NCBI RefSeq assembly: GCF_900095705.1
Contig: NZ_LT608327.1
Span: 620,001 to 684,000 of the forward strand
Length of the DNA: 64,000 nucleotides
Direction of reading: 5' to 3'
Source: Fusobacterium massiliense
GTDB taxonomy: Bacteria; Fusobacteriota; Fusobacteriia; Fusobacteriales; Fusobacteriaceae
A program made the translations under genes and the position numbers. The notes beneath the pieces are model-generated. The model worked only from the letters and a program-made list of their open reading frames with translations, made no database searches and was not told the DNA's origin. Below, piece by piece: positions 8,325 through 24,214 of this stretch; the first letter of the stretch is position 1; each line of letters starts with the position of its first letter.

Positions 8325-8357
8325 AATTTTTTTACTATTTAATTTTATACTTTCTTA

Positions 8358-8462
8358 TAACTTGAAAAAAGAGAATTTTTAAGTTTTTATTCTCAAAAAT
8401 TCTCTCAATTATGCTAAGTCATGGTCTAAACTTTTTCATCAATACTATTTGACAAATAACCA
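8358..8462 (+). mobile_element. solo right end of the same ISL3-type element
   Basis: About 105 bp match the last part of the element at 332-436, including the terminator-like hairpin and the tip with ACTATTTGACAAATA. No transposase is attached. It is the scar of a deleted copy, in the same orientation as the element at the window start. Confidence 0.75.
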
Positions 8463-8642: not shown

Positions 8643-9269
8643 TTAATAAGTATACTCATTATTTGTTAAATATTTTTTCATAAATTTTATCCATTTTTTT
8701 AAATTTCTTTTATATTCAGCATATTGTTTACCAACTTCTTCTCTTTCTTCAATTTTTTTAATAAGTTCCTCCTCTCTTTTTGGGGTATTTACTTTTTCTC
8801 TTCTTAAAATTTCTAATTCATCTAAATATTTATAATACTCTCTTCCTCTTTTTTTAAGTTCTTCTAATTTTTTATTTTTTTGGTTAATTATATCTATATG
8901 TTCTTTCTTGATATTTTCTTTTGTCCATATTATTTCATTATCCAAGTTTCTTATTTCATCAGGATAATTATAGATTGAAATTTCAATTACCAAACACCCA
9001 TCCCAATCCTCAAATTCTCCACATTTCAAATCATCTTCTTCTATTTTACTAAGAACCTTGTAAACAACTGAATCATAACCTATTTCAGGCAAATCAAAAG
9101 GTTCTTCATTACTGTAATTACTTTCTTGTTGTTCCTGGTACTTTCCTATTATTTCAATCTTTTTTTCTTTCCATATAAATTTTAAAATTTCTTCTTTACA
9201 TTTATTTAAAAAAATGTATAGCTCAGTATCTAAAAATTCATCTAAAAAAACAAATGTATCATCGTTCAT
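8643..9269 (-). CDS. candidate immunity protein for the toxin-50 module
   Basis: No family recognised. The 208-residue protein has an acidic N-terminal half (DDTFVFLDEFLDTEL; two Cys at about 83 and 91 in LKCGEFEDWDGC) and a strongly charged coiled-coil-like second half (from about 115: long KK/EE-rich helices ending in KKWIKFMKKYL). GAGGT lies 6 bp before the ATG. It starts 15 bp after the stop codon of the orphan toxin module, the usual place for a CdiI-type immunity gene, and that position is the main basis for the call. Confidence 0.55.
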   Translation of the reverse strand: MNDDTFVFLDEFLDTELYIFLNKCKEEILKFIWKEKKIEIIGKYQEQQESNYSNEEPFDLPEIGYDSVVYKVLSKIEEDDLKCGEFEDWDGCLVIEISIYNYPDEIRNLDNEIIWTKENIKKEHIDIINQKNKKLEELKKRGREYYKYLDELEILRREKVNTPKREEELIKKIEEREEVGKQYAEYKRNLKKWIKFMKKYLTNNEYTY

Positions 9270-9284
9270 TTATATACCTCTTTT

Positions 9285-11945
9285 CTATTTTGGATTTGGA
9301 TTCGCTGGAACTATATGTGCAGTTCCTTTTGAATCATAATGTATTGTAAATCTACTTGTTATACTTCTTTGTCCTGTATCTTTGTCAATAAATATACCAT
9401 TATATTTTCCTTGTGTATCCACTATTTCTTTAACAATTTTTCCATCTCTTTCAATTTTTTGTCCTGTACCTTGAAAATCATTAAGTATATTACTAGCTGT
9501 TTGCATATCTACTTCGCCCTTTCCTTGTTGAAAGTTATTGTGTCCAACTACATGTTTCCCTTGTTTTCCCTCATGTAATTTAACATTTTGTGATTTAACG
9601 GTAGTTGATAATTTTCCATTAGCTTCATTTAGTTCATTATTGGTAATATTATTTGGTTCCAATCCATTTTTCACTAAATTTCCTTCTGTAGATGTTACTC
9701 GATTAGGTATAAATTTACTTGCTCCTTTATACCCAAGTTCAAATCCTACTATATTAGCAAAAAATTTCATATCTTCTTTATAAAGCTTCTTATCTAAAGT
9801 TGGAGTTGAGTCATAATAATTTTTTATATCTCTTAAAATTGCTTTATCCATCTTCTCTGCTTGATTTCTAGGAATATTTATTCCATTTTTGTAGTTAAGA
9901 TCACTAATTACTGTATATTCTGCTCCTTTTTGTTTATAATATTCTGGAAATCTACTACTCATATATAAATCAGTTTCTGCAGATATTCTCTTTCTTGGGT
10001 CTTTCTTAGGCTCAACTAAACCTAAAGTTGTTGGATCTGGAGCTCCTGCATCTTCTGACCAAAAGAAAAATCCTCCTATTGCCATTGAACTTACACTAGC
10101 TGTTCCTGTTATTATTTTTTCTGCTAGTTTATATCCAGCACCAGTTACAGCTCCTTCAGTAATACCTTCTTTAAAGCCATCTTTATATGCTACAGTTATA
10201 TCCTCTCTATATTCTTTTGTTGTATCAATATTTCTTCTTAAGTACAAATATCTACTTTTATATGCAGCTTTTTCTAAAGTATAAGCACTACTATTCATTA
10301 ATTCAAATTGAAGGGGTACTTCTTCTCTAGCATATTTTTCATATTCTCTTACAACTCCAATTTTTTCATTAATTTTTGCAATTTTTCTATCTTTTTCTAT
10401 TCTTGCTTGTTCTTTTTCTTTGGCAATTTTATCCATTTCCTTTGGAGTAAGACTAGAGACAAACTCGTATCTATCAGCTATCTCTTTTAGCTTCTTTCTA
10501 TATTCAGCTTCTGCTTTTGCTATATCATTTTTAGCTTCTAACTCTGCTCTATAACCATCAGCAGTAACCTCACTATCAGGATTCATTTGTGCATTATCTA
10601 GTTTAGCTATATCTATTGGATTTGCCTTATTTTTTGCTATTCTCTTTTGTATTTCTTCATAAGCTATTTCTCCTGCTACTGTTGAACGTAGTTGTCCTTT
10701 ATCATTTGCTTTTCCTTTGTTATCTATTAAATCTTCTCTTATCTTCCATTCTCTTGCAAGTGACGGTCTTACTTCTTTATCTTTTGCATTTTGGTTTATA
10801 AATATCTTTTTAGTTACTTTATCATAAAAAGCTACTATTTCTTTTCCTTCTGCTTTTAACTCATCTATTCTTTCTTTTACTTTTTCTGATAATGTTGGGT
10901 CATTTGGATCAAATTTTTCTATTTCTACTCCAAGCTCTTTTTGTACTTCTTTTCTTTCTAATTTTCCTTTTGCAATAATATCCATTGCAGGTGCTGTTTG
11001 AACTCTAACTATTGCTTCCTTTATTTCTATTAGACTTCTTCTTTCTGCATCCCCTATATCTTGGCTCTTATTACCATTTATCATATTATCTATTGTTTTT
11101 ACTACTGTTCTTCCTGTTGCTTTTCCTTCTATTAAAGCAATTTGAAGATCTTCTTTAAACTTTTCAGGATTTTTAATATAGTTAATTGTTTGAGATTCTA
11201 TATTTATATCTGTTTTAAAATCTCTATCTTCTGTTATCTCTGTCATTGTATCTAAATCTCTATTTATTTCATCTCCAGAAGATTTTCCTATTTCTACATT
11301 ACCTATTACTGTATTCTTTGTTATTCCTTCTTGTTTTCTATCAGAATAATTTACTCCTATACTAGTTATTCCAGAAGTTGATACTCCTACTGAACCACCT
11401 ACTGTTTTTAATTTATCTACATTTTCTAAGTTATGTCCTACATATTCATCTATTGATAATTTTCCATTTTCACTTGTACCTATCGCAGAAGCTGTATTTT
11501 CTACCTTACCTACCTTTAGATCACTTCCATCTCCTATTATGAAAGTACTTGCATTATCTACAACTCTTCTTTCTCCATTTGTTTGTGAATAGTTTACACT
11601 TCCTGATGGAAGACCATTTGCTGATACACTTAAGCTTCCACCTTTTGTACTTCCCTTTGTTGTAGATGTATTTTGTTTACTTTCAATAGTTAGATTTTCA
11701 ATATTACCAGTAACTTTTCCACCTTCTTGATTAAATCCAGAAAGAGTCATATTCTTAGTATTGTTATGCACTTCATCTACATTTACAAATCTACCATTTT
11801 GGTAAGTAGTTCCATTACTATTCATTTTTGATTGAGAAGCTGAAATACTTACCCCATTTCCTTCTGTTTGGAAACCATTATTGTAGTTAATAGTTACACC
11901 AGCTGATATTCCACTACTTTGGTAAGTAGTTCCATTACTATTCAT
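9285..11945 (-). CDS. orphan CdiA C-terminal module with Bacterial-toxin-50 domain
   Basis: The 886 residues have no signal peptide and no TPS domain. Residues about 10-393 are nearly identical to residues about 1850-2234 of the full-length exoprotein encoded at 14036-22057. A pretoxin segment follows (GQLRSTVAGEIAY, SEVTAD), then a helical region with a hydrophobic stretch near 620-650. The last 98 residues (789-886) match the polymorphic toxin type 50 domain (LHEGKQGKHVVGHNN, then TIHYDSKGTAHIVPANP), a predicted RNase. No ribosome binding site precedes the ATG. Upstream of it the frame runs on for about 20 codons as another decayed copy of the repeat (VSASKSN) before a stop, so the module is probably silent until recombined onto the secreted protein. 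Confidence 0.85.
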   Translation of the reverse strand: MNSNGTTYQSSGISAGVTINYNNGFQTEGNGVSISASQSKMNSNGTTYQNGRFVNVDEVHNNTKNMTLSGFNQEGGKVTGNIENLTIESKQNTSTTKGSTKGGSLSVSANGLPSGSVNYSQTNGERRVVDNASTFIIGDGSDLKVGKVENTASAIGTSENGKLSIDEYVGHNLENVDKLKTVGGSVGVSTSGITSIGVNYSDRKQEGITKNTVIGNVEIGKSSGDEINRDLDTMTEITEDRDFKTDINIESQTINYIKNPEKFKEDLQIALIEGKATGRTVVKTIDNMINGNKSQDIGDAERRSLIEIKEAIVRVQTAPAMDIIAKGKLERKEVQKELGVEIEKFDPNDPTLSEKVKERIDELKAEGKEIVAFYDKVTKKIFINQNAKDKEVRPSLAREWKIREDLIDNKGKANDKGQLRSTVAGEIAYEEIQKRIAKNKANPIDIAKLDNAQMNPDSEVTADGYRAELEAKNDIAKAEAEYRKKLKEIADRYEFVSSLTPKEMDKIAKEKEQARIEKDRKIAKINEKIGVVREYEKYAREEVPLQFELMNSSAYTLEKAAYKSRYLYLRRNIDTTKEYREDITVAYKDGFKEGITEGAVTGAGYKLAEKIITGTASVSSMAIGGFFFWSEDAGAPDPTTLGLVEPKKDPRKRISAETDLYMSSRFPEYYKQKGAEYTVISDLNYKNGINIPRNQAEKMDKAILRDIKNYYDSTPTLDKKLYKEDMKFFANIVGFELGYKGASKFIPNRVTSTEGNLVKNGLEPNNITNNELNEANGKLSTTVKSQNVKLHEGKQGKHVVGHNNFQQGKGEVDMQTASNILNDFQGTGQKIERDGKIVKEIVDTQGKYNGIFIDKDTGQRSITSRFTIHYDSKGTAHIVPANPNPK
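10767..11920 (-). repeat. 1.15-kb direct repeat, distal copy
   Basis: This segment matches 15356-16509 at a constant offset of 4589 bp with no indel; only about four base differences were noticed by eye. It covers the end of the exoprotein stalk and the start of the pretoxin region, in the same reading frame in both copies. Confidence 0.9.
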
Positions 11946-12047
11946 ATTTGATTTAGAAGCTGAAACTCTAATTGCATCTACTTCTGTTTTGGAAAGTATT
12001 TATATGGGAATTATTGCTTACTTACTTTTTATTTTTAAACTATATAA

Positions 12048-12081
12048 AAGCTGAATAAATATATTTCTATCTATTCAGCTT
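12048..12081 (-). terminator. hairpin after the 103-aa gene
   Basis: AAGCTGAATA / TATTCAGCTT form a perfect 10-bp stem with a 14-nt loop, about 100 bp downstream of the 12178-12489 gene. It would end transcription arriving from the CDI-like operon before the orphan module. Confidence 0.6.
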
Positions 12082-12177
12082 AACTTTATTTATTCTGCCA
12101 TAATATCATACTATCTTTTATATATTTTTTTAATCATTTTTATCATAAATTTTATATTTTGAAATAATTACATCCTT

Positions 12178-12489
12178 TTATGTGCATTTTTTATATATAC
12201 TTTCAGTTTCAAATAAAAGATGAGATAATTCTGTATCAAATGAATAACTATCAATTAGAGGATAAGTATAACTAGGCATATATTTATTTTTATCTAGTAC
12301 TTGCATCATTATTTTTATTTGTCTTTTTGCTTCCTTTAAAATACCTCTTGGAACCTCATCAAAATTTCTCATTTCTATATCATAAGGAGTTAATTTGGGT
12401 TCTGGTTTTAATAATTCTTCTTCTATTCTATCTAATGTTTTTTGACATTGTTGTATAACTTTTTCTAAATTTTTTTTTCTTATGCTCAT
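12178..12489 (-). CDS. hypothetical 103-aa protein, immunity candidate
   Basis: No family recognised. The 103 residues are largely helical by composition (RKKNLEKVIQQCQKTLDRIE at the start) with a PEPKLTPYDIEM turn and a C-terminal half rich in Tyr, Ser and Phe. It begins 22 bp after a fragment resembling a toxin C-terminus (12512-12751) and is followed by a hairpin terminator. Small co-directional genes in this position of CDI loci are usually the cognate immunity genes of displaced toxin tails; that role is inferred. Confidence 0.5.
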   Translation of the reverse strand: MSIRKKNLEKVIQQCQKTLDRIEEELLKPEPKLTPYDIEMRNFDEVPRGILKEAKRQIKIMMQVLDKNKYMPSYTYPLIDSYSFDTELSHLLFETESIYKKCT

Positions 12490-12511
12490 TTTCTAATTCC
12501 TTTCCTTATTT

Positions 12512-12751
12512 TTAAGGTTCTAATAATGTCTTATATTTCCAAGGTTGATAAATAAATATTTGCTCAGCTCCTCCTGGATAAATATAATGTGCTTCATCTA
12601 ATTTCTGTGAATTTGCTATTCCTTTAAGTATTATTGTTCCTGGTTCAATTTGCCATTGTTTTATTCCTGTCATTTGATTCCAAGATGGAGGTAATGCTAA
12701 ACTTTCTCTATTTGTATATGAACTAAAAATTTTAAATAAAAATCGAATCAA
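12512..12751 (-). pseudogene. C-terminal fragment of a polymorphic toxin
   Basis: The open frame has only a TTG start without a ribosome binding site, and a stop lies 13 codons further up. The 79 residues have the look of the end of a toxin domain: PPSWNQMTGIKQWQIEPGTI followed by ILKGIA, YPGGAEQIFI and QPWKY, a pattern of strands and conserved Gly/Pro typical of secreted enzyme tails. I do not recognise the exact family. It is read as the remnant of an earlier toxin tail, retained with the adjacent 103-aa gene. Confidence 0.5.
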
Positions 12752-12823
12752 TTTATTAGTTTTAAGATGTCTAATTCTTTATATTACTTTATCTGTATCA
12801 ATTTTCTTTTACTACTACCTACT

Positions 12824-13066
12824 CTACATTTCATCTTTATATGGTAGTCGAACTATATTTTTAAAACATTCTTCTGAAGCTCCAAACAATTTATAATTTT
12901 TCCTAGCTGTATTTAATGACACTCTATTCGGTCCAATAATTTCATCAGGCTTCTCCTCTGACACTTTATCATATTGCCAATAGCAAACTTCACAAATATC
13001 TACAATTACTTCATCTACATTATTTATTGTTAAATAACCACAACATGGACATCTTTTTCTTTTCAT
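12824..13066 (-). CDS. CPCC-family cysteine-rich protein, immunity candidate
   Basis: This 80-residue protein starts MKRKRCPCCGYLTI and has a second cysteine pair (DICEVCYWQYD) at about 25-28, matching the CPCC cysteine-rich family, which occurs repeatedly next to polymorphic toxins and is predicted to be an immunity or zinc-binding protein. Conserved NRVSLNTARKNY lies in the middle. AAGGAG lies 8 bp before the ATG. It directly follows a decayed toxin tail at 13086-13178, which may be its former partner. Confidence 0.75.
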   Translation of the reverse strand: MKRKRCPCCGYLTINNVDEVIVDICEVCYWQYDKVSEEKPDEIIGPNRVSLNTARKNYKLFGASEECFKNIVRLPYKDEM

Positions 13067-13085
13067 AGTTGGTCTCCTTTAATTT

Positions 13086-13178
13086 TTATTTTGGTGCATA
13101 TTTTTCAATTTGTTCTAATCAATATAATTTCCCATTCTCTGGTTTATAATAAAAAATTTTTTTCTTGTATTCATTTTC
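13086..13178 (-). pseudogene. decayed toxin C-terminus upstream of the CPCC gene
   Basis: A 31-codon minus-strand frame after a TAA reads ENEYKKKIFYYKPENGKLY, then a TGA at 13119-13121, then LEQIEKYAPK and a stop 19 bp before the CPCC start codon. The residue pattern looks like protein and not random AT-rich DNA, and the internal TGA would fit a mutated Trp codon. The protein family cannot be named from so little. Confidence 0.4.
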
Positions 13179-13309
13179 TTATTTTTTCTCTCTATTATTT
13201 TCTAATATTATTTATTTAAATTATTTTTATTCAATGACTACTATATCCTTACAATATGAATTAACTGTTTTAGTTTATATATTTTATAATCCATAGATTA
13301 GAAATTCTT

Positions 13310-13882
13310 TTAATCATATAAAACTGTACAATATTTTGGATTTATTTTATTTAAAATTCTTCTTAAAATTATTGCATCTTGAGGAAATTTTTCTTTTATG
13401 TCATTCCAATTATGTAAAATAATTTTTTTAGGAAGAATAGTATCATAGATAAAATCTTCAATTGCATCCCAATTATTACCACAATGTTGAGGAAGATTCA
13501 AAGCTTTTTTGATAGAAAAAATTAATTCTAATTTATTATTGGTATTGTAAAAATTTATAAAAACTTCTTCTTTTTGTTCATATCTCTTTTTTAAAATATC
13601 TATAACTACATTATCTTCATTAGAATTAATTAAATTTTCTATATATGCATCACTTATTTCATCATATATTGATTTATAATTCTTTAACATATAATTATAT
13701 AAATATGTATTTATAGTAATTATATCTTCCTTTTTATTAAAGTTTGAAGATAAAATATTCCAATACACTTCTTCTTCTAAGGCATTCTGAAAACTATCTA
13801 TGTCTTGATAAAAAATATTTTCAAACTGTTTATCTGAAATATATTTTTTTAAATATAAACAAATAATCCTAATATACTTCAT
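13310..13882 (-). CDS. barstar-domain immunity protein (CdiI-like)
   Basis: The last ~85 of 190 residues match barstar, the tight inhibitor of barnase-type RNases: INFYNTNNKLELIFSIKKAL, then NLPQHCGNNWDAIEDFI (compare LPEYYGENLDALWDCL in barstar), then the LHNWNDIKEKF segment. The first ~105 residues form an additional helical domain (YISDKQFENIFYQDIDSF, then LEEEVYWNILSSNF) not present in classical 90-residue barstar. It is the first gene after the exoprotein whose C-terminus is barnase-like, so toxin and inhibitor match. AGGAGAAATT precedes the ATG. Expected to act in the cytoplasm against the incoming or self-made toxin. Confidence 0.88.
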   Translation of the reverse strand: MKYIRIICLYLKKYISDKQFENIFYQDIDSFQNALEEEVYWNILSSNFNKKEDIITINTYLYNYMLKNYKSIYDEISDAYIENLINSNEDNVVIDILKKRYEQKEEVFINFYNTNNKLELIFSIKKALNLPQHCGNNWDAIEDFIYDTILPKKIILHNWNDIKEKFPQDAIILRRILNKINPKYCTVLYD

Positions 13883-14035
13883 AATTTCTCCTTTTTTTAA
13901 ATAATTAGTTATTTATAAAAATCTTTTTAATTATATAAATATAGAGCTTTAAAGTTAAAACTACATTTATAACTTTCCTCTAAAATTTTTATAAAATCAT
14001 ATTTTATATTTTAAAACTTTTATAAATATAAAACA

Positions 14036-17000
14036 TTAAGGCAAAATAGGAAATACTGTTTTATAGTGATCATATGTTCCATATATCAAGCCATCACTTG
14101 AATATAGAATTCTATAACCTGGATTTTTAAAATTTGAACGACTCATTATGTAGTTAATTCCCACATCAGCTTCATACCATATTCTTCCATTTTTTATTGC
14201 TAAAATCCCAGTAGAATTATTAAAAATATCTCCTCCAATAGCCTTTCCAGGTGCATAATTATTTAATGCTTTTCCTTCCGACCATCCCAATACTTTTGCT
14301 TGAGCTTTAGTAATATAATTATTTGGCAATCTTCCTGTTTTAGTAATACTATCTACTGCATCATTAGCTAATTCACTAACTCTATATTGTTCTTTTAATC
14401 TAGCATAGTTTGTTACATTATGAGCAGGATAATTCAATTCTTTTAAAGAATTATTTAATTTATAATTTGTATATATTTCCTTTCCTTTAGAAATACCTGC
14501 TCCTACTGTTTTCATTACCATAGGAATTACTACTATATCTGTTGCTGATTCAACAGAACCTCTTATAAATTCTTGTTTTCCTTCTACCTCTTCTTTTGTT
14601 CCATATTGAGTACTTCCCTTTCCTACTCTTCCAGCTTCATCTCCTAATTTAGAACCAAATCCTAAGGTTGCAGATTTAAATAGACTGTTTACTGTTGCAA
14701 ATCCTTCACTTACTGCACCTTTCATATCTGAATTAAAAAATTTATCTCCTGCTTCAAGTAAATGAAGTGAAACATTTCCTATTTCATCTAAACTTTTTTT
14801 AAGATGATATCCATAAGATTTTGCTCTTGGATTACTTTCAATAACAACCTCTTTTTTTATACCATCTATTCTTTTATAATATTCTCTATCTGAATTATTT
14901 TTATTTAATGAATCTACTATAGGATCTGCTATTGCTATTTTTTTCTTTCCTTCTTTACTTTCTGCATAGATTAAATGTATACTCTTAACATGAAAATCTG
15001 GTCTAAAAATAAAGTCTTCAATTTTACCTTTATCTCCTCTCATTTCTTTTAAAATTTTAGGATTCTTTTTCCAAGCACCATTACTCATTGCTTCTATGTA
15101 TTTAAGTGTATTAAAATATTGAGCTTCAACATCTTTATCTGCTAAATCTGCTGTGACCTCACTATCTTTATCCATCTTTGCTACATCAAAACTTGATGCA
15201 CTTATTGGATTTTTATCACCTTTCTTTAATCTATCCTTTATCTCATCATAGGCTATCTCTCCTGCTACTGTTGAACGTAGTTGTCCTTTATTATTTTCCT
15301 TTCCTCTTCCTAGCTTTAAGTCTTCTTTTATCTTGTATTCTCTTGCTATGGAAGCTCTTACTTCTTCATCTTTTGCATTTTGGTTTATAAATATCTTTTT
15401 AGTTACTTTATCATAAAAAGCTACTATTTCTTTTCCTTCTGCTTTTAACTCATCTATTCTTTCTTTTACTTTTTCTGATAATGTTGGGTCATTTGGATCA
15501 AATTTTTCTATTTCTACTCCAAGCTCTTTTTGTACTTCTTTTCTTTCTAATTTTCCTTTTGCAATAATATCCATTGCAGGCGCTGTTTGAACTCTAACTA
15601 TTGCTTCCTTTATTTCTATTAGACTTCTTCTTTCTGCATCTCCTATATCTTGGCTCTTATTACCATTTATCATATTATCTATTGTTTTTACTACTGTTCT
15701 TCCTGTTGCTTTTCCTTCTATTAAAGCAATTTGAAGATCTTCTTTAAACTTTTCAGGATTTTTAATATAGTTAATTGTTTGTGATTCTATATTTATATCT
15801 GTTTTAAAATCTCTATCTTCTGTTATCTCTGTCATTGTATCTAAATCTCTATTTATTTCATCTCCAGAAGATTTTCCTATTTCTACATTACCTATTACTG
15901 TATTCTTTGTTATTCCTTCTTGTTTTCTATCAGAATAATTTACTCCTATACTAGTTATTCCAGAAGTTGATACTCCTACTGAACCACCTACTGTTTTTAA
16001 TTTATCTACATTTTCTAAGTTATGTCCTACATATTCATCTATTGATAATTTTCCATTTTCACTTGTACCTATCGCAGAAGCTGTATTTTCTACCTTATCT
16101 ACCTTTAGATCACTTCCATCTCCTATTATGAAAGTACTTGCATTATCTACAACTCTTCTTTCTCCATTTGTTTGTGAATAGTTTACACTTCCTGATGGAA
16201 GACCATTTGCTGATACACTTAAGCTTCCACCTTTTGTACTTCCCTTTGTTGTAGATGTATTTTGTTTACTTTCAATAGTTAGATTTTCAATATTACCAGT
16301 AACTTTTCCACCTTCTTGATTAAATCCAGAAAGAGTCATATTCTTAGTATTGTTATGCACTTCATCTACATTTACAAATCTACCATTTTGGTAAGTAGTT
16401 CCATTACTATTCATTTTTGATTGAGAAGCTGAAATACTTACCCCATTTCCTTCTGTTTGGAAACCATTATTGTAGTTAATAGTTACACCAGCTGATATTC
16501 CACTACTTTTACCAGTAGATGAATATGAATTATTTAATTCAACAGCTGTCTTATTAATATTTTCTACATTATTATAGATAAGTTTAGTATCTTGTGCTTG
16601 TGTTCCAACATATTCAACATTCTTTACAGTATTGTAAGTTATACTTGAATTTTCATCTTTTCCCTTTATTGTTGTTACAACAGCTCTTTCACTATGCGAG
16701 TTTGATTTAGAACTTGCTTTATTAAACCCTAAGTTTACTCCTACATTTGCATAGAAGTTATTATTAACTTTAAAATCACCATCTTTAATATCTTTTAAAG
16801 TTGCTTTACTTCCATCTTTTTTAGTAATATTACTACTTAAACCTTGAACTAAACCTGTAACAGTGTTAGTTGTTGAAGCTATACCTCCAAGTATATCTCC
16901 TGACTTCATTTGATTAAATGAATCTATCCCTTGTTTCGCTCTATCTAAGGCAGGTGATTTTATTCTTACTGATAGATTTATTCCACTGCTCTTTGATGAT

Positions 17001-20000
17001 GTTTCTATATCTTTTACATCTTTTCTTGCTCCATAAGTAATATTTCCATTATTTATTTCAATATTACCATGTTTGAAATTTGTTGCTGTTATTTCTGCAC
17101 CCTTATTAAGAGTTACATTATCTCCTAATACTAGATTAGATTTAGCATTTGTTAAATCTTTTTCTTTTAACTTACTTTCTGATTTTCCATATCCAACAGA
17201 AAGTCCTCCACTTCCTATACTTCCACTAAATCCTTTTTTACTTTCTTCATAGGAATATGTGCTATTTAAAGCTATTGAATCTGTTGTTAATTTACCTAAA
17301 ACTTGTGAATTATCTCCCAATATTAAATTAGAACCTACAACATCAATATCTTTTGTGATTATTCCTTGATTCTTTACATAAAGATTGCTCGCTGAATTTT
17401 CTTCATCGTGAACTTTTTCTTTTTTAGATTTTGAACTCAAGAATCCTTTTTGTTTACTTCTACTTTCTCTATCCTCTGAATCAACTTCAGATTTTACTAG
17501 AACTTTTGCATCAATTAAAGCATTATCTGCTATTACTGTTGAACCTAAAATATTTAAATTATCAGCAGAAATACTTAGATTTTCAGTTTCTAATTGAGAG
17601 CCTACATTTCTTACAAAAGCATAGGAATTAAAGTTATTATCATCTTTTCCAAACTTTTGCTCTCCACTTAATTTTAAGCCTTCAATATTTACATTAATAG
17701 CTTCTATATTTGTATTTATAGCTCTAGTTATAGCTGCTATACTTGAATAATTTTTTGCAAAAATATTTAAGTTGTTTGCGCTTATTTCTGAAATATTTTC
17801 TAGCTCCGTATGTCTTGTTCTGTTAAGTTCTCCAAAATTGTAATTAAAGCCTTTTATTGTAGTTCTATTAAAAATGTTTTCATTTGAAATTAAATTTAAA
17901 TTATTTCTCGCAAATATTTTCGAACCTTGATTTATTATACTATTTTTCCCTATTAACTCAACATCAAAACCTTTTATTTCTGCTTGGCTATTTCCTATAC
18001 TTTTATTTAAGATCTCATCTGCTTCTAAATATGTTTTTCCACTTCCACCAATAATTCCTGCATTATCAATTTTATTAGCAACTATTGTTGTTTTTTCTAT
18101 TCCAGCTATTCTATTTTTCCCACTAGAGTTAATATTATTTAAAGTATCTTTTGATAAGTAAACTCTTGGCGCTAAAACATTTAAATCATTTACTTTTTGA
18201 TACTCATACCAAAGTATATCTCTTTCTAAATTAGCTATCTGTTCTCTTGTTAAAGGACTTCCAATAGTTAAATTTTGTTTTTTGCTTTCAATTTCTGCAT
18301 TATCAATTAATTCTTTCATTGAAAATGCTTTTCCATTTAAAAATCTTGTTCCAAGTTTTTCAAATAAGGTTTTTTCTACTAATTGATTTTCATAGAAAGC
18401 ATCTCCAAGTCTTCTAACATTGTCCCACTTATCTTTATACCCTATTTTATCTAAGAAATAATCACTTCCATAGTAATTACTTTTAGAAATATATTTAAGT
18501 CTCGTTTCTAAAATATATTTTGATGTAGGATTTGTATTTTCAACAAATAGAGCTGATGGAATATTTGATATTGGTTCAATTTTCCCAGTATTTATTATAT
18601 TTTGAATCTCAGACATATTACTAACAACTTCAATTTCTCTATTTATATTCTTGTCAGTAATTTTTAATTCGTTATTTATAATAGAATTACCTTGAGCAAC
18701 AGTTTCTTTTTTCATTTCAGGAATAATGACAGGTTTATTTTCTCTTTTTCTTCCATTAGCTTCATCTATTGCTTGAACAACTTCATTTTTTACTTTTATA
18801 TCTAGAGATTTACCCTCAATTACACTTGGTTGACCTGTTACATAACCATATCTTCCTATGTATATTCTTTCATAAGGAACTCTTACTCTAATACCATCAT
18901 CTAAATAAGTGTAGTTCCTTTTTTCTACACTTCTTTCTTTTCTTCCATTTGGGAAAGTATACTCATAAACATAATCGTTTTGAAAATCTCTTACATAAGT
19001 TGTTGTATTATTTGCCTCATGATAAGGATGAAAAGGATCTACAAGACTAAAGCCCTCAAAACTTTCACTTAATCCTAAAACTTCTTCTCCTGTTTTTACT
19101 TTTATTTTGCCTCCAGAAGTACTTACAAGATTTTCTAATTTATCTGCATTGATGGTTACAATTTCTTTTGTAGAAATTATTGAATCTTTATTCAAAATAT
19201 TTTTAGCCTCAATATCAATATTATTATTAGCTAAAATTTTTCCATGATGTGTTTTCGCTTGATTTATTAGTCTTTCTTTTAAAGCAATTTTAGGTGTTTT
19301 TGAACTTCCGGTTTTTATGGTATTATTTTCTCCTAAAAAACCTCTCATATAGTCCGGGTATTTAGAAAATAAGTAAGATGGGTAAATATGATTTACCATA
19401 ATATTTTTTAATTTATCAAAATGTCTTTCTTGACCTTCTCTAGCCTCATCTCTTGCTCTTCCACCACTACTAATACTTTCCCCATGAAAGTCTGAACTTT
19501 CTCTATTTCTTTTCCACAAATTATTTACTTCATCTAAAGTTAAATAATCCACATCCCAAGTTTCATAAAAACTTTCATAACTATTGTAATCATCTACTTT
19601 TCCAATGTTCTCTACAATATCAGATTTAATTCTTAGCTTATTTTCTGCTTGAATAGTTCCAATATTATTTGTTAATTTCTTACTTTCAATGAAAATATTA
19701 TTTGCTAATATTTCGCCCTCTTGGTTTTCAATAATATTTCCTGTTATATCTAAATTCTTACCGGCATAAATTGTTTTAGCCTTTTGATTTTCTATTTTTC
19801 CTAAAGAATTTATTTTCAAATCATTTTCACTTGCAAGTAAGTCTTTATTTACCAAATCTTTAGTTTTAATATCTACATTAGTCCCACTAAGTATAGCTTT
19901 ATTTTCTATTTTTTCATTAGCTTTTAATTTTAGATCTTGAGCTGATAAATCTTTTTTGTTTGTAAAATTCCTACTATCTATTGAAATTAAATTCTTTCCT

Positions 20001-22057
20001 GTTGTTTCTCCATCATTTACAACATCTTTAGCTTTTATTGTAAGGCTATTTTCTCCGTGTAATTTTGAAACTAAATTTACATCTTGACTTGTTGTTAAGA
20101 TTACATCTGTTCCTGTAATTTCTCCAGTATTTGAGAATTTTTTTAAATCTTTCATTTCAATATTATTTGAAGCTATCTTTCCTGTATTTGCCAAATCTGT
20201 TTCATTTAACTTTATTTCTTTATTTGAAACTATTTCACCGGAATTTTTTAACTCATTATTATTTGCTTCAATTTTATTTAATGCCTTAATATTTTTTGTA
20301 TTAGTTAATTTATTCGTTGTTAGAACTATATTATTTAAAGCTAGTAAATCGCCTGTATTTTCAACTGTATTTACATTAGCAACTATATTATCAGCTTTAA
20401 TTAATGAATTATTTCCATTGTTTTTTAATTCATTTCCAATAATATTTAGATTTCCTGTTTCAATAGTATTTTCATTTATTACAGAACCTTTAGTTGTAAT
20501 ATTTTTAGCATGAACAATCCCTTTATTTTCTATAGCTCCTGAACTTATATCATCTTTAACAAAAATATTTTTTGTATTTTTTAGACTTCCAGCTATGTCT
20601 AATTTTCCTTCGGTTGCAAGTAATCCCTCATTTGTTAAATTTCCTACTACAATATTTTCTTTAGCTAATAATTTTTTTGTTGTTTTTGTATCTTTAGCTG
20701 TAAAACTTCCAGCAGTTACTATCTCTCCAGTATTTTCAGCATTCCCTGTAATCTTTATATTTCCACTAGCTTGAATATCTTTAGTATTATTTAATTTCCC
20801 ATTTATATTAAGTGTAGAACTTGTCCCAACTACTCCAGAATTTTCTAAATTCTTAACTGAAATATCGCTAACTGCAACTAATTTATTTGTTGTTTTTACA
20901 TTATCTGCTGTAAATTTTGAATTAGTAAGAATTTCTCCTGTACTATTTACATTATTAGCCTTTATATCTTTTAATGTAGCTATATTTCCAGTATTTATTA
21001 AATCTTTAGTTTCTAAAAATTCTTTAGTATATATATTGGCTGAATTTTCTACATTACCTTTTAATACTATTTCTTTTTCAGCTTGAGTTTTATCTCCAGC
21101 AAGTTTAATCTCTTGAGCATCTATTTTAATATTGTCTTGTGATAGTCCAGAATTAGTTTGTTCATATTCTTTGGCTTTAATATCTATTCCATTTCCTTGA
21201 ACATTTTTAACTTTTACCTTACCCTCAGCCGTTATTTCTAAATTTTGTTTTAATGCAAAAATTCCCCCCATATTAAGTAGAGAATTTTTGTCAGTCAGAT
21301 GGATTTTAATTTGATTGGCATACATACTTCCTGCTCCAATCATATCTCCACTGATAACTAGGGTTCCACCTTTTTTATCTTTGTTTTTAATATGTTCTTC
21401 CATATCAAAAGTATGTTCGCCAGTTACTAAATCTAATTTTTCTCCAGCAACTAATTTACCTTGTATTTCTAGTAATTTAGATAACATTTGAGATTTATCT
21501 GTACTACTTAAATCAAAACCTTTATCTCCAATTAGAATTTTCCCTTTTTCAATATCAAAATCTTTAACATTACCATCAACAAAATTTACTTTTCCTGTTG
21601 TTGCTGTGAAGTTTTTGATATTGATAGTTCCTGCTCCATTTAAGTAAATTCCATTTTCATTACTTAAAATCACATTTAATTTTTCTCTACTTAAAGCTTC
21701 AATATATCCTTCTATATCGGATCTATTCGCTCCGTTTACTTGAATAACTGCAAGATTTGCTGCTTGGTGTGGTCCTAGATTGGGATTTGAATTAATTAGT
21801 CCAGCTAGATGAGATCTTCCGACATTGTCAGCATTATTAAGAACTTGTCCTTCTTTACCGACATTGTATTCCAAAAAATTATTTACACTAACGCCTCTAT
21901 GATTAGGAGTAGCAATATTTACTATTGGAATACCTGTTTGAGATTTATCTAAACTTGTATTTTGATTTGAATTTGGATCTAAAACTAGATTAGCAGAAAA
22001 AATATTCCAACTCAGCAGAAACTGAAAAAATATTGCAATGATTTTTTTGTTTTTCAT
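14036..22057 (-). CDS. CdiA/FhaB-like exoprotein with barnase-type C-terminal RNase
   Basis: This giant secreted protein (2673 aa) is the TpsA partner of a two-partner secretion system. Residues 1-21 are a signal peptide, and about 22-290 the TPS domain (hemagglutination-activity family, with LINSNPNLGPHQAANLAV). Filamentous-hemagglutinin repeats run to about 820, a non-repetitive aromatic-rich segment from about 820 to 1315, and further repeats to about 1900. A pretoxin region (GQLRSTVAGEIAY, DSEVTAD near 2265-2310) precedes a variable tail. Residues 2580-2673 align with barnase from NYITKAQAKVLGW through APGKAIGGDIF and RILYSSDGLIY to DHYKT; Glu2629, Arg2649 and His2664 match the catalytic residues Glu73, Arg87 and His102, while Arg83 is Lys2644. 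It is 15 bp downstream of tpsB and 153 bp upstream of the barstar gene. Likely contact-dependent RNase delivery. Confidence 0.92.
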   Translation of the reverse strand: MKNKKIIAIFFQFLLSWNIFSANLVLDPNSNQNTSLDKSQTGIPIVNIATPNHRGVSVNNFLEYNVGKEGQVLNNADNVGRSHLAGLINSNPNLGPHQAANLAVIQVNGANRSDIEGYIEALSREKLNVILSNENGIYLNGAGTINIKNFTATTGKVNFVDGNVKDFDIEKGKILIGDKGFDLSSTDKSQMLSKLLEIQGKLVAGEKLDLVTGEHTFDMEEHIKNKDKKGGTLVISGDMIGAGSMYANQIKIHLTDKNSLLNMGGIFALKQNLEITAEGKVKVKNVQGNGIDIKAKEYEQTNSGLSQDNIKIDAQEIKLAGDKTQAEKEIVLKGNVENSANIYTKEFLETKDLINTGNIATLKDIKANNVNSTGEILTNSKFTADNVKTTNKLVAVSDISVKNLENSGVVGTSSTLNINGKLNNTKDIQASGNIKITGNAENTGEIVTAGSFTAKDTKTTKKLLAKENIVVGNLTNEGLLATEGKLDIAGSLKNTKNIFVKDDISSGAIENKGIVHAKNITTKGSVINENTIETGNLNIIGNELKNNGNNSLIKADNIVANVNTVENTGDLLALNNIVLTTNKLTNTKNIKALNKIEANNNELKNSGEIVSNKEIKLNETDLANTGKIASNNIEMKDLKKFSNTGEITGTDVILTTSQDVNLVSKLHGENSLTIKAKDVVNDGETTGKNLISIDSRNFTNKKDLSAQDLKLKANEKIENKAILSGTNVDIKTKDLVNKDLLASENDLKINSLGKIENQKAKTIYAGKNLDITGNIIENQEGEILANNIFIESKKLTNNIGTIQAENKLRIKSDIVENIGKVDDYNSYESFYETWDVDYLTLDEVNNLWKRNRESSDFHGESISSGGRARDEAREGQERHFDKLKNIMVNHIYPSYLFSKYPDYMRGFLGENNTIKTGSSKTPKIALKERLINQAKTHHGKILANNNIDIEAKNILNKDSIISTKEIVTINADKLENLVSTSGGKIKVKTGEEVLGLSESFEGFSLVDPFHPYHEANNTTTYVRDFQNDYVYEYTFPNGRKERSVEKRNYTYLDDGIRVRVPYERIYIGRYGYVTGQPSVIEGKSLDIKVKNEVVQAIDEANGRKRENKPVIIPEMKKETVAQGNSIINNELKITDKNINREIEVVSNMSEIQNIINTGKIEPISNIPSALFVENTNPTSKYILETRLKYISKSNYYGSDYFLDKIGYKDKWDNVRRLGDAFYENQLVEKTLFEKLGTRFLNGKAFSMKELIDNAEIESKKQNLTIGSPLTREQIANLERDILWYEYQKVNDLNVLAPRVYLSKDTLNNINSSGKNRIAGIEKTTIVANKIDNAGIIGGSGKTYLEADEILNKSIGNSQAEIKGFDVELIGKNSIINQGSKIFARNNLNLISNENIFNRTTIKGFNYNFGELNRTRHTELENISEISANNLNIFAKNYSSIAAITRAINTNIEAINVNIEGLKLSGEQKFGKDDNNFNSYAFVRNVGSQLETENLSISADNLNILGSTVIADNALIDAKVLVKSEVDSEDRESRSKQKGFLSSKSKKEKVHDEENSASNLYVKNQGIITKDIDVVGSNLILGDNSQVLGKLTTDSIALNSTYSYEESKKGFSGSIGSGGLSVGYGKSESKLKEKDLTNAKSNLVLGDNVTLNKGAEITATNFKHGNIEINNGNITYGARKDVKDIETSSKSSGINLSVRIKSPALDRAKQGIDSFNQMKSGDILGGIASTTNTVTGLVQGLSSNITKKDGSKATLKDIKDGDFKVNNNFYANVGVNLGFNKASSKSNSHSERAVVTTIKGKDENSSITYNTVKNVEYVGTQAQDTKLIYNNVENINKTAVELNNSYSSTGKSSGISAGVTINYNNGFQTEGNGVSISASQSKMNSNGTTYQNGRFVNVDEVHNNTKNMTLSGFNQEGGKVTGNIENLTIESKQNTSTTKGSTKGGSLSVSANGLPSGSVNYSQTNGERRVVDNASTFIIGDGSDLKVDKVENTASAIGTSENGKLSIDEYVGHNLENVDKLKTVGGSVGVSTSGITSIGVNYSDRKQEGITKNTVIGNVEIGKSSGDEINRDLDTMTEITEDRDFKTDINIESQTINYIKNPEKFKEDLQIALIEGKATGRTVVKTIDNMINGNKSQDIGDAERRSLIEIKEAIVRVQTAPAMDIIAKGKLERKEVQKELGVEIEKFDPNDPTLSEKVKERIDELKAEGKEIVAFYDKVTKKIFINQNAKDEEVRASIAREYKIKEDLKLGRGKENNKGQLRSTVAGEIAYDEIKDRLKKGDKNPISASSFDVAKMDKDSEVTADLADKDVEAQYFNTLKYIEAMSNGAWKKNPKILKEMRGDKGKIEDFIFRPDFHVKSIHLIYAESKEGKKKIAIADPIVDSLNKNNSDREYYKRIDGIKKEVVIESNPRAKSYGYHLKKSLDEIGNVSLHLLEAGDKFFNSDMKGAVSEGFATVNSLFKSATLGFGSKLGDEAGRVGKGSTQYGTKEEVEGKQEFIRGSVESATDIVVIPMVMKTVGAGISKGKEIYTNYKLNNSLKELNYPAHNVTNYARLKEQYRVSELANDAVDSITKTGRLPNNYITKAQAKVLGWSEGKALNNYAPGKAIGGDIFNNSTGILAIKNGRIWYEADVGINYIMSRSNFKNPGYRILYSSDGLIYGTYDHYKTVFPILP
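15356..16509 (-). repeat. 1.15-kb direct repeat, copy inside the full-length exoprotein gene
   Basis: It pairs with 10767-11920 (offset 4589 bp, no indels seen). Downstream of it the two proteins share only short islands such as GQLRSTVAGEIAY and then diverge completely, as expected where toxin tails are exchanged. Confidence 0.9.
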
Positions 22058-22072
22058 TTTACTTTCCTCTCT

Positions 22073-23872
22073 TTAAAATTTTATCTTCAATGCGCTAGCA
22101 AAATATATTTCGTGATTTTTAGGTTTCAAATAGCTTGAATGTTTATGAGCTCTTCCATAACCAAAATCTATGTCTAAATATTTTGCGCTATATCTCATTC
22201 CTATTTGTATTCCTGTCGCATAGCCTGTTCCATACTTTGATTTATCTCTGTTATTTTCTATAGCTCCGTATGAATAAGATAAATATGGGCTTAAAGTTCC
22301 TAAATTTTTAGGAATTTTTATATTATATGCTAACTCTGTTCCTATATCTATTGCTTTATCTCCCATTAAATTATCACTTCTGTGATATCCTGGGACACTT
22401 CCTATTCCACCTATTGTTTGTCTTTCTGACGAATAAAGCACATCAGATGAATATGAAGCTTGTATATTTGTTCTTGAAATTAAGTTATGTGTTAAAGGTT
22501 TGTAATACATGGCTAAAAAATTATATTTTTTGAATTGAGCTTTTGGTGTTTTATCTGTTTTGTTTTTATCTATCTCAGCTCCAAAATTTTTAAGTCCTTT
22601 TTCATATTGAAATCCCAAACTTAAAATTCCTTTTTTTATAGCTGTTGTGTAGTTTAATCCTATACTCGCAATAGATAATCTTCTATTTATCAATGTTGCT
22701 TCTTCTAAATAGTTTTCATTGTGCTTAGTTTTTATTCCAGCTTCAATGCTAAGTTTACTTTGTTTATTTCTCCAAATTATTTTTTCTATGTCAAAACCTA
22801 CTGTGTTGTTAATTGATTGCATGTCGTATATTGTATTAAAAGCATAAAAACTACTATCTTTTACACTTTTACTTGTTGAGAATTTGAAATTGTAATCTTT
22901 GTATCTTAATATATATCTAAAATTATACATATCAAGCTGTCTTTTATATGGTAGCACATCTCCTTTACTTGGGTCATATCCAGGAGGTCCTATTGGTAAT
23001 ATTCCTCCGGCTGGAAGTGTATCTGAACTTTGTTTCCAGCTTCTATCTGGATTTTTCTTGTGAACAGTCATATATGAAAAAAATAGATTATCACCAATTC
23101 CTAATGGACTGTCAATATTTAATGATATTCCTCCTCTCCAAAAGGCATTTTGATAATCTTCTCCATAGTTATTTGTATTTAATGAAAGAGTAAATTTTTC
23201 TTTCATTTCATTATTAACTTTAATTATCCAATAATTAGGCTTAGTTCCTTCAACTATATCAACTGACACATTATTTGCTCCTAAAGAATTAAAATTCTCA
23301 ACAGCTGTATCAATTTTTGTATTATCTAAAACATCTCCATTTTTTAAAGGAAACATAAAAAACTTTTTTAATTTATCAAGATTAGTTTCATCATTAAGAA
23401 CTATATTTTCAACTCTACCAACAATAAAATCTATCTTTAAAAGCCCAGCTAATACATCGCTATTATCAGAAATTTTAGCATAACTTGTTACATAGCCTTT
23501 AGAAATTAATTGATTAGTTAATTCAGAAAGTAAATTTTCTAAATCATTAGAGTTTAAATTTTTATTAATATATTTTTTTACAATTTTTTCTTCTAGCAAG
23601 TCATTTAAAAGATTTTCAGAGTCAGATATTTCTATTTTTGAAATATGATATTTAAGTGTATTCATTTTTTCTTCGTTCAAAATATTTTTATTTAATTTTT
23701 CAATTTCTTCGGAAGAAAAATTTAAGATTTCAGAATTTTTTAGATTTCTTTCATTAATTCTATTTTCTTGTTCAAAATTTCGAACATCTCTTTCAATAAG
23801 TCTATCTAAATTTTCCGTGGCAAAAGAAAAAGAACTAAGTAAAACCATCAAAAAAGAAATTAATATCTTCAT
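22073..23872 (-). CDS. TpsB/CdiB-type outer-membrane transporter
   Basis: This ShlB/FhaC/CdiB-family porin exports the exoprotein across the outer membrane. It has a signal peptide (MKILISFLMVLLSSFSFA), a POTRA-like periplasmic region (about 95-220, with ISKGYVTSYAKISD) and a C-terminal 16-strand barrel. Its conserved motif reads GGIGSVPGYHRSDNL, with VPGY in place of the usual VRGY, and it ends in an aromatic-containing strand (YFASALKIKF). Start choice: a GTG at 23881 is in frame but abuts the AAGGAGG at 23883-23889; the ATG at 23872, 10 bp from it, is preferred. It is the first gene of the CDI-like operon. Confidence 0.92.
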   Translation of the reverse strand: MKILISFLMVLLSSFSFATENLDRLIERDVRNFEQENRINERNLKNSEILNFSSEEIEKLNKNILNEEKMNTLKYHISKIEISDSENLLNDLLEEKIVKKYINKNLNSNDLENLLSELTNQLISKGYVTSYAKISDNSDVLAGLLKIDFIVGRVENIVLNDETNLDKLKKFFMFPLKNGDVLDNTKIDTAVENFNSLGANNVSVDIVEGTKPNYWIIKVNNEMKEKFTLSLNTNNYGEDYQNAFWRGGISLNIDSPLGIGDNLFFSYMTVHKKNPDRSWKQSSDTLPAGGILPIGPPGYDPSKGDVLPYKRQLDMYNFRYILRYKDYNFKFSTSKSVKDSSFYAFNTIYDMQSINNTVGFDIEKIIWRNKQSKLSIEAGIKTKHNENYLEEATLINRRLSIASIGLNYTTAIKKGILSLGFQYEKGLKNFGAEIDKNKTDKTPKAQFKKYNFLAMYYKPLTHNLISRTNIQASYSSDVLYSSERQTIGGIGSVPGYHRSDNLMGDKAIDIGTELAYNIKIPKNLGTLSPYLSYSYGAIENNRDKSKYGTGYATGIQIGMRYSAKYLDIDFGYGRAHKHSSYLKPKNHEIYFASALKIKF

Positions 23873-23881
23873 TATTTTCAC

Positions 23882-23936: not shown

Positions 23937-24214
23937 GAGATTTTTTATTTTTTCTTTCTCCTCCTAAATTCTAATAGTAAGTATCACACTAATAAATCTC
24001 TTTAGTAAGTTCTTCATTAGAACTAATTCTCACTATTTAATTTTATACTTTCCTATTGAGAAATAAAAAAGCTGTTGTAATTTAATGATAAAATTATCAA
24101 TTTACAACAGCTCACTGCAAACATTTAAGTCTAATTTTGATGAACTCAAAGCCTTATGGCTTCTAGATTTTAAAAAAGCAAGTGCTTTAAAAAATTTTTT
24201 TCAAGAAGTGAACC
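23937..24214. other. intergenic region between the CDI-like operon and pepF
   Basis: Besides the tpsB promoter this stretch contains a copy of the A/T-rich motif (24036-24066), the inverted repeat at 24068-24112 and about 100 bases (24113-24214) with a 33-codon minus-strand open frame that has no start. Nothing else is recognised. Confidence 0.6.
24068..24112 (-). terminator. hairpin downstream of pepF
   Basis: AGCTGTTGTAA / TTACAACAGCT form an 11-bp stem with an AT-rich, itself partly palindromic loop (ATGATAAAATTATCA), followed on the minus strand by TTTTTT. It is the likely terminator of the uraA-luxS-pepF operon. Confidence 0.65.

What the first reader, a model, noticed from the sequence alone, without database searches (positions are those of the whole stretch)
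8643..23881. CDI-like locus carrying a stacked array of one complete and three displaced toxin/immunity modules
Reading right to left: TpsB, full-length TpsA with barnase tail, barstar immunity; then a decayed tail fragment (13086-13178) plus CPCC gene; a second tail fragment (12512-12751) plus 103-aa gene; then an 886-aa module with toxin-50 tail plus 208-aa gene. The order tail-immunity repeats four times and the tails become recognisable remnants, while the immunity-type genes keep good ribosome binding sites. This is what serial insertion of new tails upstream of old ones would leave, with immunity retained against sibling strains. Orphan CdiA-CT/CdiI modules are known in proteobacteria; such an array in Fusobacterium with a barnase/barstar lead pair looks little described.
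Basis: partly seen in the sequence, partly recalled or inferred. Interest (0 to 1): 0.85.

Follow-up and report, generated by a model that had tools for sequence, protein, structure and literature searches.

The report
Array of spare contact-toxin/antidote cassettes
This Fusobacterium chromosome carries a contact-dependent killing protein with a barnase tail and its barstar antidote, followed by three left-over toxin/antidote cassettes in which the antidotes are kept while two of the toxins have decayed: a known kind of arrangement, with close copies of its cassettes in other fusobacterial genomes.

Summary
Reading right to left: TpsB, a 2,673-aa TpsA ending in barnase, barstar, a decayed tail plus CPCC gene, a tail fragment plus 103-aa gene, and an 886-aa orphan with an Ntox50 tail plus 208-aa gene. 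Each pairing has outside support. Ntox50 + 208-aa recurs in a second locus of this genome and behind a full-length TpsA in another genus. The 79-aa tail + 103-aa gene recurs in F. vincentii. The 24-residue remnant resembles toxin ends that precede CPCC genes, Listeria best. The four antidote genes have ribosome-binding sites and low dN/dS; the two orphan frames scored have no start signal. Synonymous divergence of shared antidote genes from the other genus is 0.27-0.39, against about 2.5 for the one housekeeping gene compared (nrdD), which points to horizontal transfer. A simple age-ordered stack is not supported: the most distal cassette is the most intact, and 1,140 nt of it differ from TpsA at about 5 positions. 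This is an orphan cdiA-CT/cdiI (tpsC-like) array, a known kind that my searches did not find described in Fusobacterium. Two circular Fusobacterium records seem to consist of such cassettes, an unproven hint of cassette circles.

The parts
22073..23881 (-). TpsB/CdiB outer-membrane transporter (602 aa, GTG start)
   Evidence: Pfam ShlB 1.6e-46, POTRA_2 3.9e-13, POTRA_3 4.5e-8; strong ribosome-binding site
14036..22057 (-). Full-length TpsA/CdiA-type protein (2673 aa)
   Evidence: TPS domain 1.9e-39, Fil_haemagg_2 4.9e-18; paralogue at C6:482643-490577 of the same genome, matched at 95% (residues 1-503) and 86% (422-2188) aa identity
14051..14356 (-). Barnase toxin domain at the TpsA C-terminus
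   Evidence: phmmer to PDB barnase, E 1e-24; PF00545 6.2e-5, just below cut-off
13310..13882 (-). Barstar-type antidote gene (190 aa)
   Evidence: PF01337 2.9e-9; 85% aa and 90% DNA identity to G037 C1:605347-605916; no PDB match by sequence
13089..13160 (-). 24-residue remnant of a displaced toxin end, one in-frame stop
   Evidence: aligns to the Listeria toxin end that precedes a CPCC gene, 0 of 2,000 shuffles; other family members weaker, 6 of 11 above p 0.05
12824..13066 (-). CPCC cysteine-rich antidote-type gene (80 aa)
   Evidence: PF14206 2e-27; 88% aa over 68 residues to the G037 copy beside barstar; dN/dS 0.21, interval 0.07-0.60, over 65 codons
12512..12751 (-). Displaced tail fragment (79-aa frame, TTG, no ribosome-binding site)
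   Evidence: 78% aa identity to F. vincentii NZ_CP007066.1 and 56% over 46 aa near the end of an Rhs protein of Haliovirga; dN/dS 0.60, interval 0.24-1.82
12178..12489 (-). 103-aa antidote-type gene paired with the 79-aa tail
   Evidence: 90% aa identity to the gene directly behind the homologous tail in F. vincentii; dN/dS 0.145, interval 0.06-0.39
9285..11945 (-). Orphan CdiA-CT frame (886 aa): FHA/pre-toxin part, entry-like middle part (inferred), Ntox50 tail; no ribosome-binding site
   Evidence: Fil_haemagg_2 5e-12, Ntox50 4.2e-15; repeat of TpsA
10772..11920 (-). Direct repeat copy B (in the orphan)
   Evidence: 98-100% per 60-nt block to TpsA at offset 4589; left end 11920 from BLAST
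15361..16509 (-). Direct repeat copy A (in TpsA)
9306..9578 (-). Ntox50 toxin domain
   Evidence: PF15542 residues 790-880; DNA match to G037 starts at 9580
8643..9269 (-). 208-aa antidote gene paired with Ntox50
   Evidence: 83% aa at C3:205453-206061 behind an Ntox50 remnant and 81% at G037 C1:2633601-2634209 behind an Ntox50 tail; dN/dS 0.20 and 0.24

Best explanation
This is a chromosomal contact-dependent inhibition (two-partner secretion) locus whose lead weapon is TpsA with a barnase tail, neutralised at home by barstar. Behind it lies an array of three displaced C-terminal cassettes, each a toxin end plus its own antidote gene. Shown here: the anatomy, recurrence of tail and neighbour together in other genomes, missing start signals of the two orphan frames scored, ribosome-binding sites and low dN/dS of the antidote genes, and synonymous divergence that points to exchange of cassettes between genera. 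Inferred: antidotes are translated and protect against siblings and neighbours that fire those toxins; toxin ends decay because nothing selects for them once displaced; cassettes arrive by homologous recombination in the conserved FHA/pre-toxin repeat. The nearly identical 1.14-kb repeat on both sides of the barnase-to-103-aa block suggests that this block was inserted, or the Ntox50 cassette's upstream part re-copied, recently. A crossover between the two repeats would in principle load Ntox50 onto TpsA and lose barnase/barstar, so the intact distal cassette can serve as a spare.
For: Domain matches. Repeat geometry and ribosome-binding sites. Pairings: Ntox50/208-aa in three loci; 79-aa/103-aa in F. 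vincentii; CPCC or CxxC-rich genes directly behind the toxin family of the remnant at 8 of 8 places opened, out of 49 records matched. Barnase, barstar and CPCC in the same order in G037 but with the barnase tail as an orphan. dN/dS of antidotes 0.15-0.26; tails 0.31-0.60 with wide intervals. dS 0.27-0.39 (antidote genes shared with G037) against about 2.5 (nrdD, near saturation). Four other loci of the same genome have a ShlB-type transporter (4 of 4 scanned) next to a TpsA-like gene; one (C4:126-163 kb) has about eight tail/antidote sets by my reading. Precedent with experiments: orphan modules in E. coli and other bacteria (PMC3150448, passages), P. aeruginosa (PMC4725963, passages), tpsC cassettes in meningococcus (PMC3848433, passages).
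Against: No expression, toxicity or protection data. VENN, the usual boundary motif, is absent from TpsA and the orphan. The 79-aa tail and the 103- and 208-aa genes match no toxin or immunity family in Pfam or NCBIfam. The tail and antidote dN/dS intervals overlap, and pairs span times when the toxin may have been whole. The G002 relative of the 103-aa gene is shortened, and the G037 CPCC copy is frame-disrupted near its end. In G037 the Ntox50 end is out of frame with its TpsA, and the F. vincentii copy of the 79-aa tail has a stop near its end, so neither is an intact lead toxin. CPCC genes also occur with no toxin annotated beside them (6 of 10 places). Matches to the C-terminal half of TpsA occur in only 13 of 61 family genomes, the window's own included.
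Confidence: 0.87

Rival explanations
1. Age-ordered stack: each new tail was inserted directly behind TpsA, pushing older pairs outwards one at a time.
For: Pairs lie in order; the two middle tails are decayed; modules with 5'-truncated toxins fit displacement.
Against: The outermost module is the most intact and its upstream part is almost identical to the current TpsA; barnase-barstar-CPCC is a block shared with another genus at a different place.
Confidence: 0.2
2. Antidote collection: the small genes were gathered by horizontal transfer for protection only, and the toxin fragments came along as recombination handles; TpsA tail switching is irrelevant.
For: Cross-genus dS far below the nrdD value; low dN/dS of antidotes; decayed tails; the meningococcal authors favour collection of immunity genes (PMC3848433, passages).
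Against: The Ntox50 domain of the orphan is whole, with dN/dS 0.31 (0.17-0.61) to G037, and the related Ntox50 cassette lies at the end of a full-length TpsA in G037, though out of frame with it there.
Confidence: 0.35
3. The small genes are unrelated cargo or ordinary toxin-antitoxin genes that happen to lie behind a TPS locus.
For: Three of the five small frames (79, 103 and 208 aa) match no family above cut-off; CPCC genes occur in other contexts.
Against: Recurrent pairing with the same toxin ends in other genomes.
Confidence: 0.04
4. Assembly artefact: near-identical repeats were misjoined and the orphan order is not real.
For: A 1.14-kb repeat with about 5 differences; 11 copies of the FHA repeat in the loci fetched from this genome, the two here included.
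Against: Parts of the order are seen in other places: barstar-CPCC in G037, tail-103-aa in F. vincentii, Ntox50-208-aa in two further loci. The assembly has only 6 contigs.
Confidence: 0.05

Closest known systems
Orphan cdiA-CT/cdiI arrays (E. coli EC93, EC869; Yersinia), Poole et al. 2011, PMC3150448 (passages read)
   Same: 5'-truncated toxin ends mostly without translation starts, each followed by an antidote gene, behind cdiBAI; homology to the lead cdiA upstream of the variable part in some orphans; orphan tails appear as lead tails in other strains
   Different: No VENN boundary here; proteins diverge around a SEVTAD motif; two of the three orphan tails are decayed remnants; Fusobacteriota
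Meningococcal tpsC cassettes with intervening ORFs, Arenas et al. 2013, PMC3848433 (passages read)
   Same: tpsA-related cassettes interspersed with small antidote ORFs, a long 99%-identical stretch between tpsA and a cassette, recombination that swaps the tpsA end, uptake from outside
   Different: Recombination not observed here; cassettes shared between genera; DNA uptake sequences not examined
Pseudomonas CDI systems, PMC4725963 (passages read)
   Same: Orphan modules in P. aeruginosa; a barstar-domain immunity protein in a P. brassicacearum CDI system
   Different: Barnase tail and barstar seen together here, in Fusobacterium, with decayed further modules
Polymorphic toxin systems, Zhang et al. 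2012, PMC3482391 (passages read)
   Same: Barnase-barstar and Ntox50 are listed toxin families, with fusobacteria in their ranges
   Different: In the table passages that I saw, Ntox50 has no immunity partner ('-'), and T5SS is not listed as the route for Ntox50 or barnase; 'CPCC' does not occur in the held part of the text

Membership tests
CDI system (two-partner secretion) | CdiB/TpsB transporter with POTRA and FhaC-type barrel | tested here: met
CDI system (two-partner secretion) | Large TPS-domain protein with haemagglutinin repeats and a C-terminal toxin | tested here: met
CDI system (two-partner secretion) | Cognate antidote gene directly downstream | tested here: met
   barstar 153 nt behind the barnase tail
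CDI system (two-partner secretion) | Contact-dependent growth inhibition of non-immune cells | not testable with these tools
   needs co-culture
CDI system (two-partner secretion) | VENN boundary motif (typical, not required: the review passage says 'VENN (E/Q)LYN, or other') | tested here: not met
   absent in TpsA and the orphan
Orphan cdiA-CT/cdiI array | Truncated toxin ends lacking translation starts, each followed by an antidote gene with a ribosome-binding site | tested here: met
   the 103-aa gene is only moderately strong (-5.9); the 24-residue remnant's start was not scored
Orphan cdiA-CT/cdiI array | Orphan tails related to lead tails elsewhere | tested here: met
   Ntox50 at the end of a TpsA in G037, out of frame there; barnase the reverse way round
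Orphan cdiA-CT/cdiI array | Orphan pairs are functional toxin/antidote pairs | not testable with these tools
   needs expression in a laboratory strain
tpsC cassette system | Recombination between cassette and tpsA | tested here: inconclusive
   near-identical repeat is consistent; no strain pair of the same species available
Barnase/barstar | Barnase sequence match and barstar family match | tested here: met
Ntox50 | PF15542 above cut-off; C-terminal HxVP motif listed in PMC3482391 | tested here: met
   56.7 bits against 22.2; HIVP read; motif listing
Cys_rich_CPCC (PF14206) | PF14206 above cut-off | tested here: met
   95.2 bits against 24.5

The most novel reading that the evidence does not exclude
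Fusobacterial CDI cassettes travel as small DNA circles formed by recombination between the conserved FHA repeats and re-enter arrays by single crossover, which would leave the near-identical direct repeats seen on both sides of the barnase-to-103-aa block. Two records deposited as circular plasmids, F. vincentii 3_1_27 NZ_CP007066.1 (15,921 bp) and F. hwasookii ChDC F300 NZ_CP013335.1 (5,489 bp), seem to consist of such cassettes, and I saw no replication gene in either (annotation, and Pfam scans of 13 of their proteins). The F. vincentii record joins across its ends at the conserved 79-aa-tail/103-aa-gene pair.
Probability: 0.15. Interest if true: 0.7.

Novelty: new member of a known kind. 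Interest (0 to 1): 0.45.

Why it matters
It describes an orphan CDI array with full anatomy in a phylum where, in the two Fusobacterium papers whose passages I read, two-partner secretion is treated mainly as adhesion, virulence or a possible competition role (PMC12940168, PMC10269558). It proposes testable partners for toxins: a 208-aa antidote for Ntox50 (none listed in the table passage seen), CPCC-type cysteine-rich antidotes for a CdiA/Rhs toxin end found in several phyla, and a 103-aa antidote for an unnamed tail. It also points to cassettes crossing genera with antidotes under purifying selection. The cassette-circle idea would make an open question, how arrays are built, directly testable by long reads.

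Tried and rejected
A genome-contig scan with alignment A1 found no relative; the second scan (PepF) returned F. gastrosuis and a Fusobacterium MAG as nearest named relatives (77-78% aa; very near records may be left out of that collection). The fetched stretch of neither has a TPS locus beside pepF, and in F. gastrosuis the nrd/pepF order differs, so no clean empty site could be read. PADLOC gave two weak matches, E 0.002 and 0.009. Barstar has no PDB sequence match. The repeat at 8283-8401, which also resembles 24027-24083, looked like an array boundary but is dispersed genome-wide (44 matches listed; 40 of 388 candidates scored). An exact count of all orphan modules in the genome was not made; counts are by eye. 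The V. parahaemolyticus toxin end has no Pfam toxin family. An NCBIfam scan of the longer relatives of the tails failed on a frame error and was not repeated.
Full report
WHAT IS THERE. On the minus strand, in reading order: TpsB (22073-23881), TpsA (14036-22057), barstar (13310-13882), a remnant (13089-13160) and a CPCC gene (12824-13066), a 79-aa tail frame (12512-12751) and a 103-aa gene (12178-12489), an 886-aa orphan (9285-11945) and a 208-aa gene (8643-9269). Pfam finds the TPS domain, haemagglutinin repeats, the transporter domains, barstar, CPCC and Ntox50 above cut-off; the ribonuclease model sits 0.1 bit below its cut-off, but phmmer matches PDB barnase at 1e-24 over the last ~100 residues. 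The nearest named relatives that a genome scan returned are F. gastrosuis and a Fusobacterium MAG (pepF 77-78% aa). The window is part of a 1.81-Mb, 6-contig genome with four further ShlB-type transporter genes, each next to a TpsA-like gene, one of which is interrupted.

THE REPEAT. The orphan's first part repeats TpsA at a constant offset of 4,589 nt: 19 consecutive 60-nt blocks at 98-100%, about 5 mismatches in 1,140 nt, starting abruptly near 16509/11920; near-identity ends near 15361/10772 and weaker similarity (55-88% per block) runs on to about 15160/10570. Both proteins pass a SEVTAD motif there and diverge. The other nine copies of this FHA stretch in the loci fetched from this genome (seven at C4:134-162 kb, two at C6:479-485 kb; eleven with the two here) are about 90-94% identical to it, so the pair in the window is unusually close. 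The upstream part of the outermost orphan is therefore the freshest, not the oldest.

THE PAIRS. (1) Barnase/barstar: in genome G037 (another genus, unnamed) a barnase tail is an orphan frame (336 aa) behind a TpsA-like open frame of 3,139 aa with its own downstream gene and one further tail/antidote-like pair. It is separated by an insert that looks IS110-like (by recall, not searched) from barstar (90% DNA identity to the window), which is followed directly by a CPCC gene (87%) and then by another orphan whose middle part resembles the window's Ntox50 orphan. (2) CPCC: the 24-residue remnant before it aligns with the end of a toxin that precedes CPCC in Listeria (0 of 2,000 shuffles, p 0.0005; Paenibacillus 0.004; Lactococcus, E. 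coli and Rhizobium 0.02-0.03; the other six of eleven comparisons above 0.05). Searching with the V. parahaemolyticus Rhs end that lies 11 nt before a CPCC gene gave 49 plasmid records. At all 8 places that I opened a CPCC or CxxC-rich small gene follows directly, once in a displaced pair behind an Imm63 gene (Pantoea). In the opposite direction only 4 of 10 opened CPCC places, of 36 records, showed a toxin or toxin end; the other six were judged from annotation. PF14206 is above cut-off in 4 of 98 Fusobacteriota genomes. (3) 79-aa tail/103-aa gene: F. vincentii NZ_CP007066.1 has the tail at 78% and the gene at 90% aa identity, adjacent across the record start; its tail copy has a stop near the end. 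Part of the tail also lies near the end of an Rhs protein of Haliovirga. In G002 what looks (by eye) like the start of a transporter gene is fused to the last residues of such a tail, followed by a shortened relative of the 103-aa gene. (4) Ntox50/208-aa: a second copy in the same genome (C3:205.4-206.2 kb) has an Ntox50 remnant before the gene. In G037 (C1:2633.6-2634.6 kb) the pair sits at the end of a 3,044-aa TpsA, though the Ntox50 end is out of frame with it there. The DNA match to G037 starts at 9580, within 2 nt of the Pfam Ntox50 domain start, whereas the orphan/TpsA similarity ends near the SEVTAD motif, so exchange seems to have happened at two nested boundaries.

EXPRESSION SIGNS AND SELECTION. 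Anti-Shine-Dalgarno pairing: barstar -8.9, CPCC -8.8, 208-aa -7.1, 103-aa -5.9 kcal/mol; the 886-aa frame and the 79-aa tail 0; background of 548 start-like codons: mean -2.7, 4.4% at or below -7. Nei-Gojobori dN/dS: 208-aa 0.20 and 0.24 (window against C3 and G037), barstar 0.26, CPCC 0.21, 103-aa 0.145; tails: Ntox50 domain 0.31, Ntox50 end against C3 0.43, barnase tail region 0.43, 79-aa tail 0.60. Intervals overlap between the groups. dS for the three antidote genes shared with G037 is 0.27-0.39 (0.43 to the C3 copy), whereas nrdD, the only housekeeping gene compared with G037, has dS about 2.5 (near saturation), and 1.1-1.2 to the two genus mates. This points to horizontal exchange rather than descent.

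MECHANISM. The lead protein is most simply a CDI effector: TpsB exports TpsA, the barnase tail is delivered to a neighbour, barstar protects the producer (established for the families; not tested here). Displaced tails lack start signals, so they would be silent; their antidotes look expressible and selected. The repeat geometry (identical sequence, unrelated tail block, identical sequence, other tail) is what insertion of a block by recombination in the FHA repeat, or re-copying of that repeat, would leave. A crossover between the repeats would give a shorter state with Ntox50 on TpsA.

CIRCLES. F. vincentii 3_1_27 NZ_CP007066.1 (15,921 bp) and F. hwasookii ChDC F300 NZ_CP013335.1 (5,489 bp) are deposited as circular plasmids. 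Their reading frames look like TpsA 3' parts, toxin tails (EndoU, AHH) and small genes; 13 of their proteins scanned against Pfam gave no replication family, and no annotated product is one; not every short frame was scanned. They could be excised circles, or repeat-rich contigs that an assembler closed. By contrast, two Leptotrichia wadei plasmids with TPS loci carry annotated replication genes. An extrachromosomal circle was proposed as one recombination route in meningococcus (PMC3848433, passage). One literature search on CdiA, orphan and circular terms listed a single paper, on Serratia genomes, which I did not open.

KNOWN OR NEW. Orphan cdiA-CT/cdiI arrays (PMC3150448) and tpsC cassettes (PMC3848433) define the kind. 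Searches of an open-licence library pairing Fusobacterium with contact-dependent growth inhibition, polymorphic toxin, CdiA (12 of 16 listed), cdiI, or two-partner secretion with toxin and immunity listed no paper whose title or shown abstract start describes such an array in Fusobacterium; most were not opened. One review mentions CDI as a possible TpsA role (PMC12940168, passages) and a pangenome paper lists cdiA as a virulence gene in two strains (PMC10269558, passages). The 2012 survey lists barnase, Ntox50 and TpsA-type systems in fusobacteria (PMC3482391, passages). A barstar-domain CDI immunity protein was noted in Pseudomonas (PMC4725963, passages), so barstar in CDI is not itself new; the 2022 review says that characterised CdiA-CT structures resemble each BECR subfamily apart from barnase (PMC9086364, passages). 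Verdict: a real and rich new member of a known kind, with three antidote pairings worth testing.

Noticed in passing
G000:C4:126339-163101 (L021, L022): A much larger array in the same genome: TpsB, TpsA and about eight tail/antidote sets by eye, including a TreTu toxin domain (PF24691) and several membrane-protein-like antidote candidates; some frames are interrupted.
   Followed up: partly
L088 (NZ_CP007066.1) and L126 (NZ_CP013335.1): Circular Fusobacterium plasmid records that seem to hold only CDI cassettes, with no replication gene seen; L126 also has a 1.7-kb EndoU/DUF5376 tandem repeat at 99.4%.
   Followed up: partly
window 8283-8401: Dispersed intergenic-looking repeat of about 75-119 bp with at least 40 matches across the genome; copies also lie near other TPS arrays.
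   Followed up: partly
L069 10938-12190 (G002:C48): What looks like a deletion remnant of a CDI locus: the start of a transporter-like gene is fused to the end of a toxin tail, followed by a shortened 103-aa-type gene, a second tail remnant and a 158-aa antidote-type gene.
   Followed up: partly
window 7974-8222: 82-aa gene between nrdD and the array with a strong ribosome-binding site, no family above cut-off, and a 60% identical relative in G037 at C1:2611935.
   Followed up: no
G000:C4:24835-28248 (L028): Three tandem copies of a ~225-aa lipoprotein-like gene, each behind a copy of the same tail end: apparent tandem duplication of one tail/antidote pair.
   Followed up: no
L033 10236-10565 (G037:C1): The Ntox50 end and the 3,044-aa TpsA upstream are in different reading frames, a possible phase-variable or decayed junction.
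   Followed up: no
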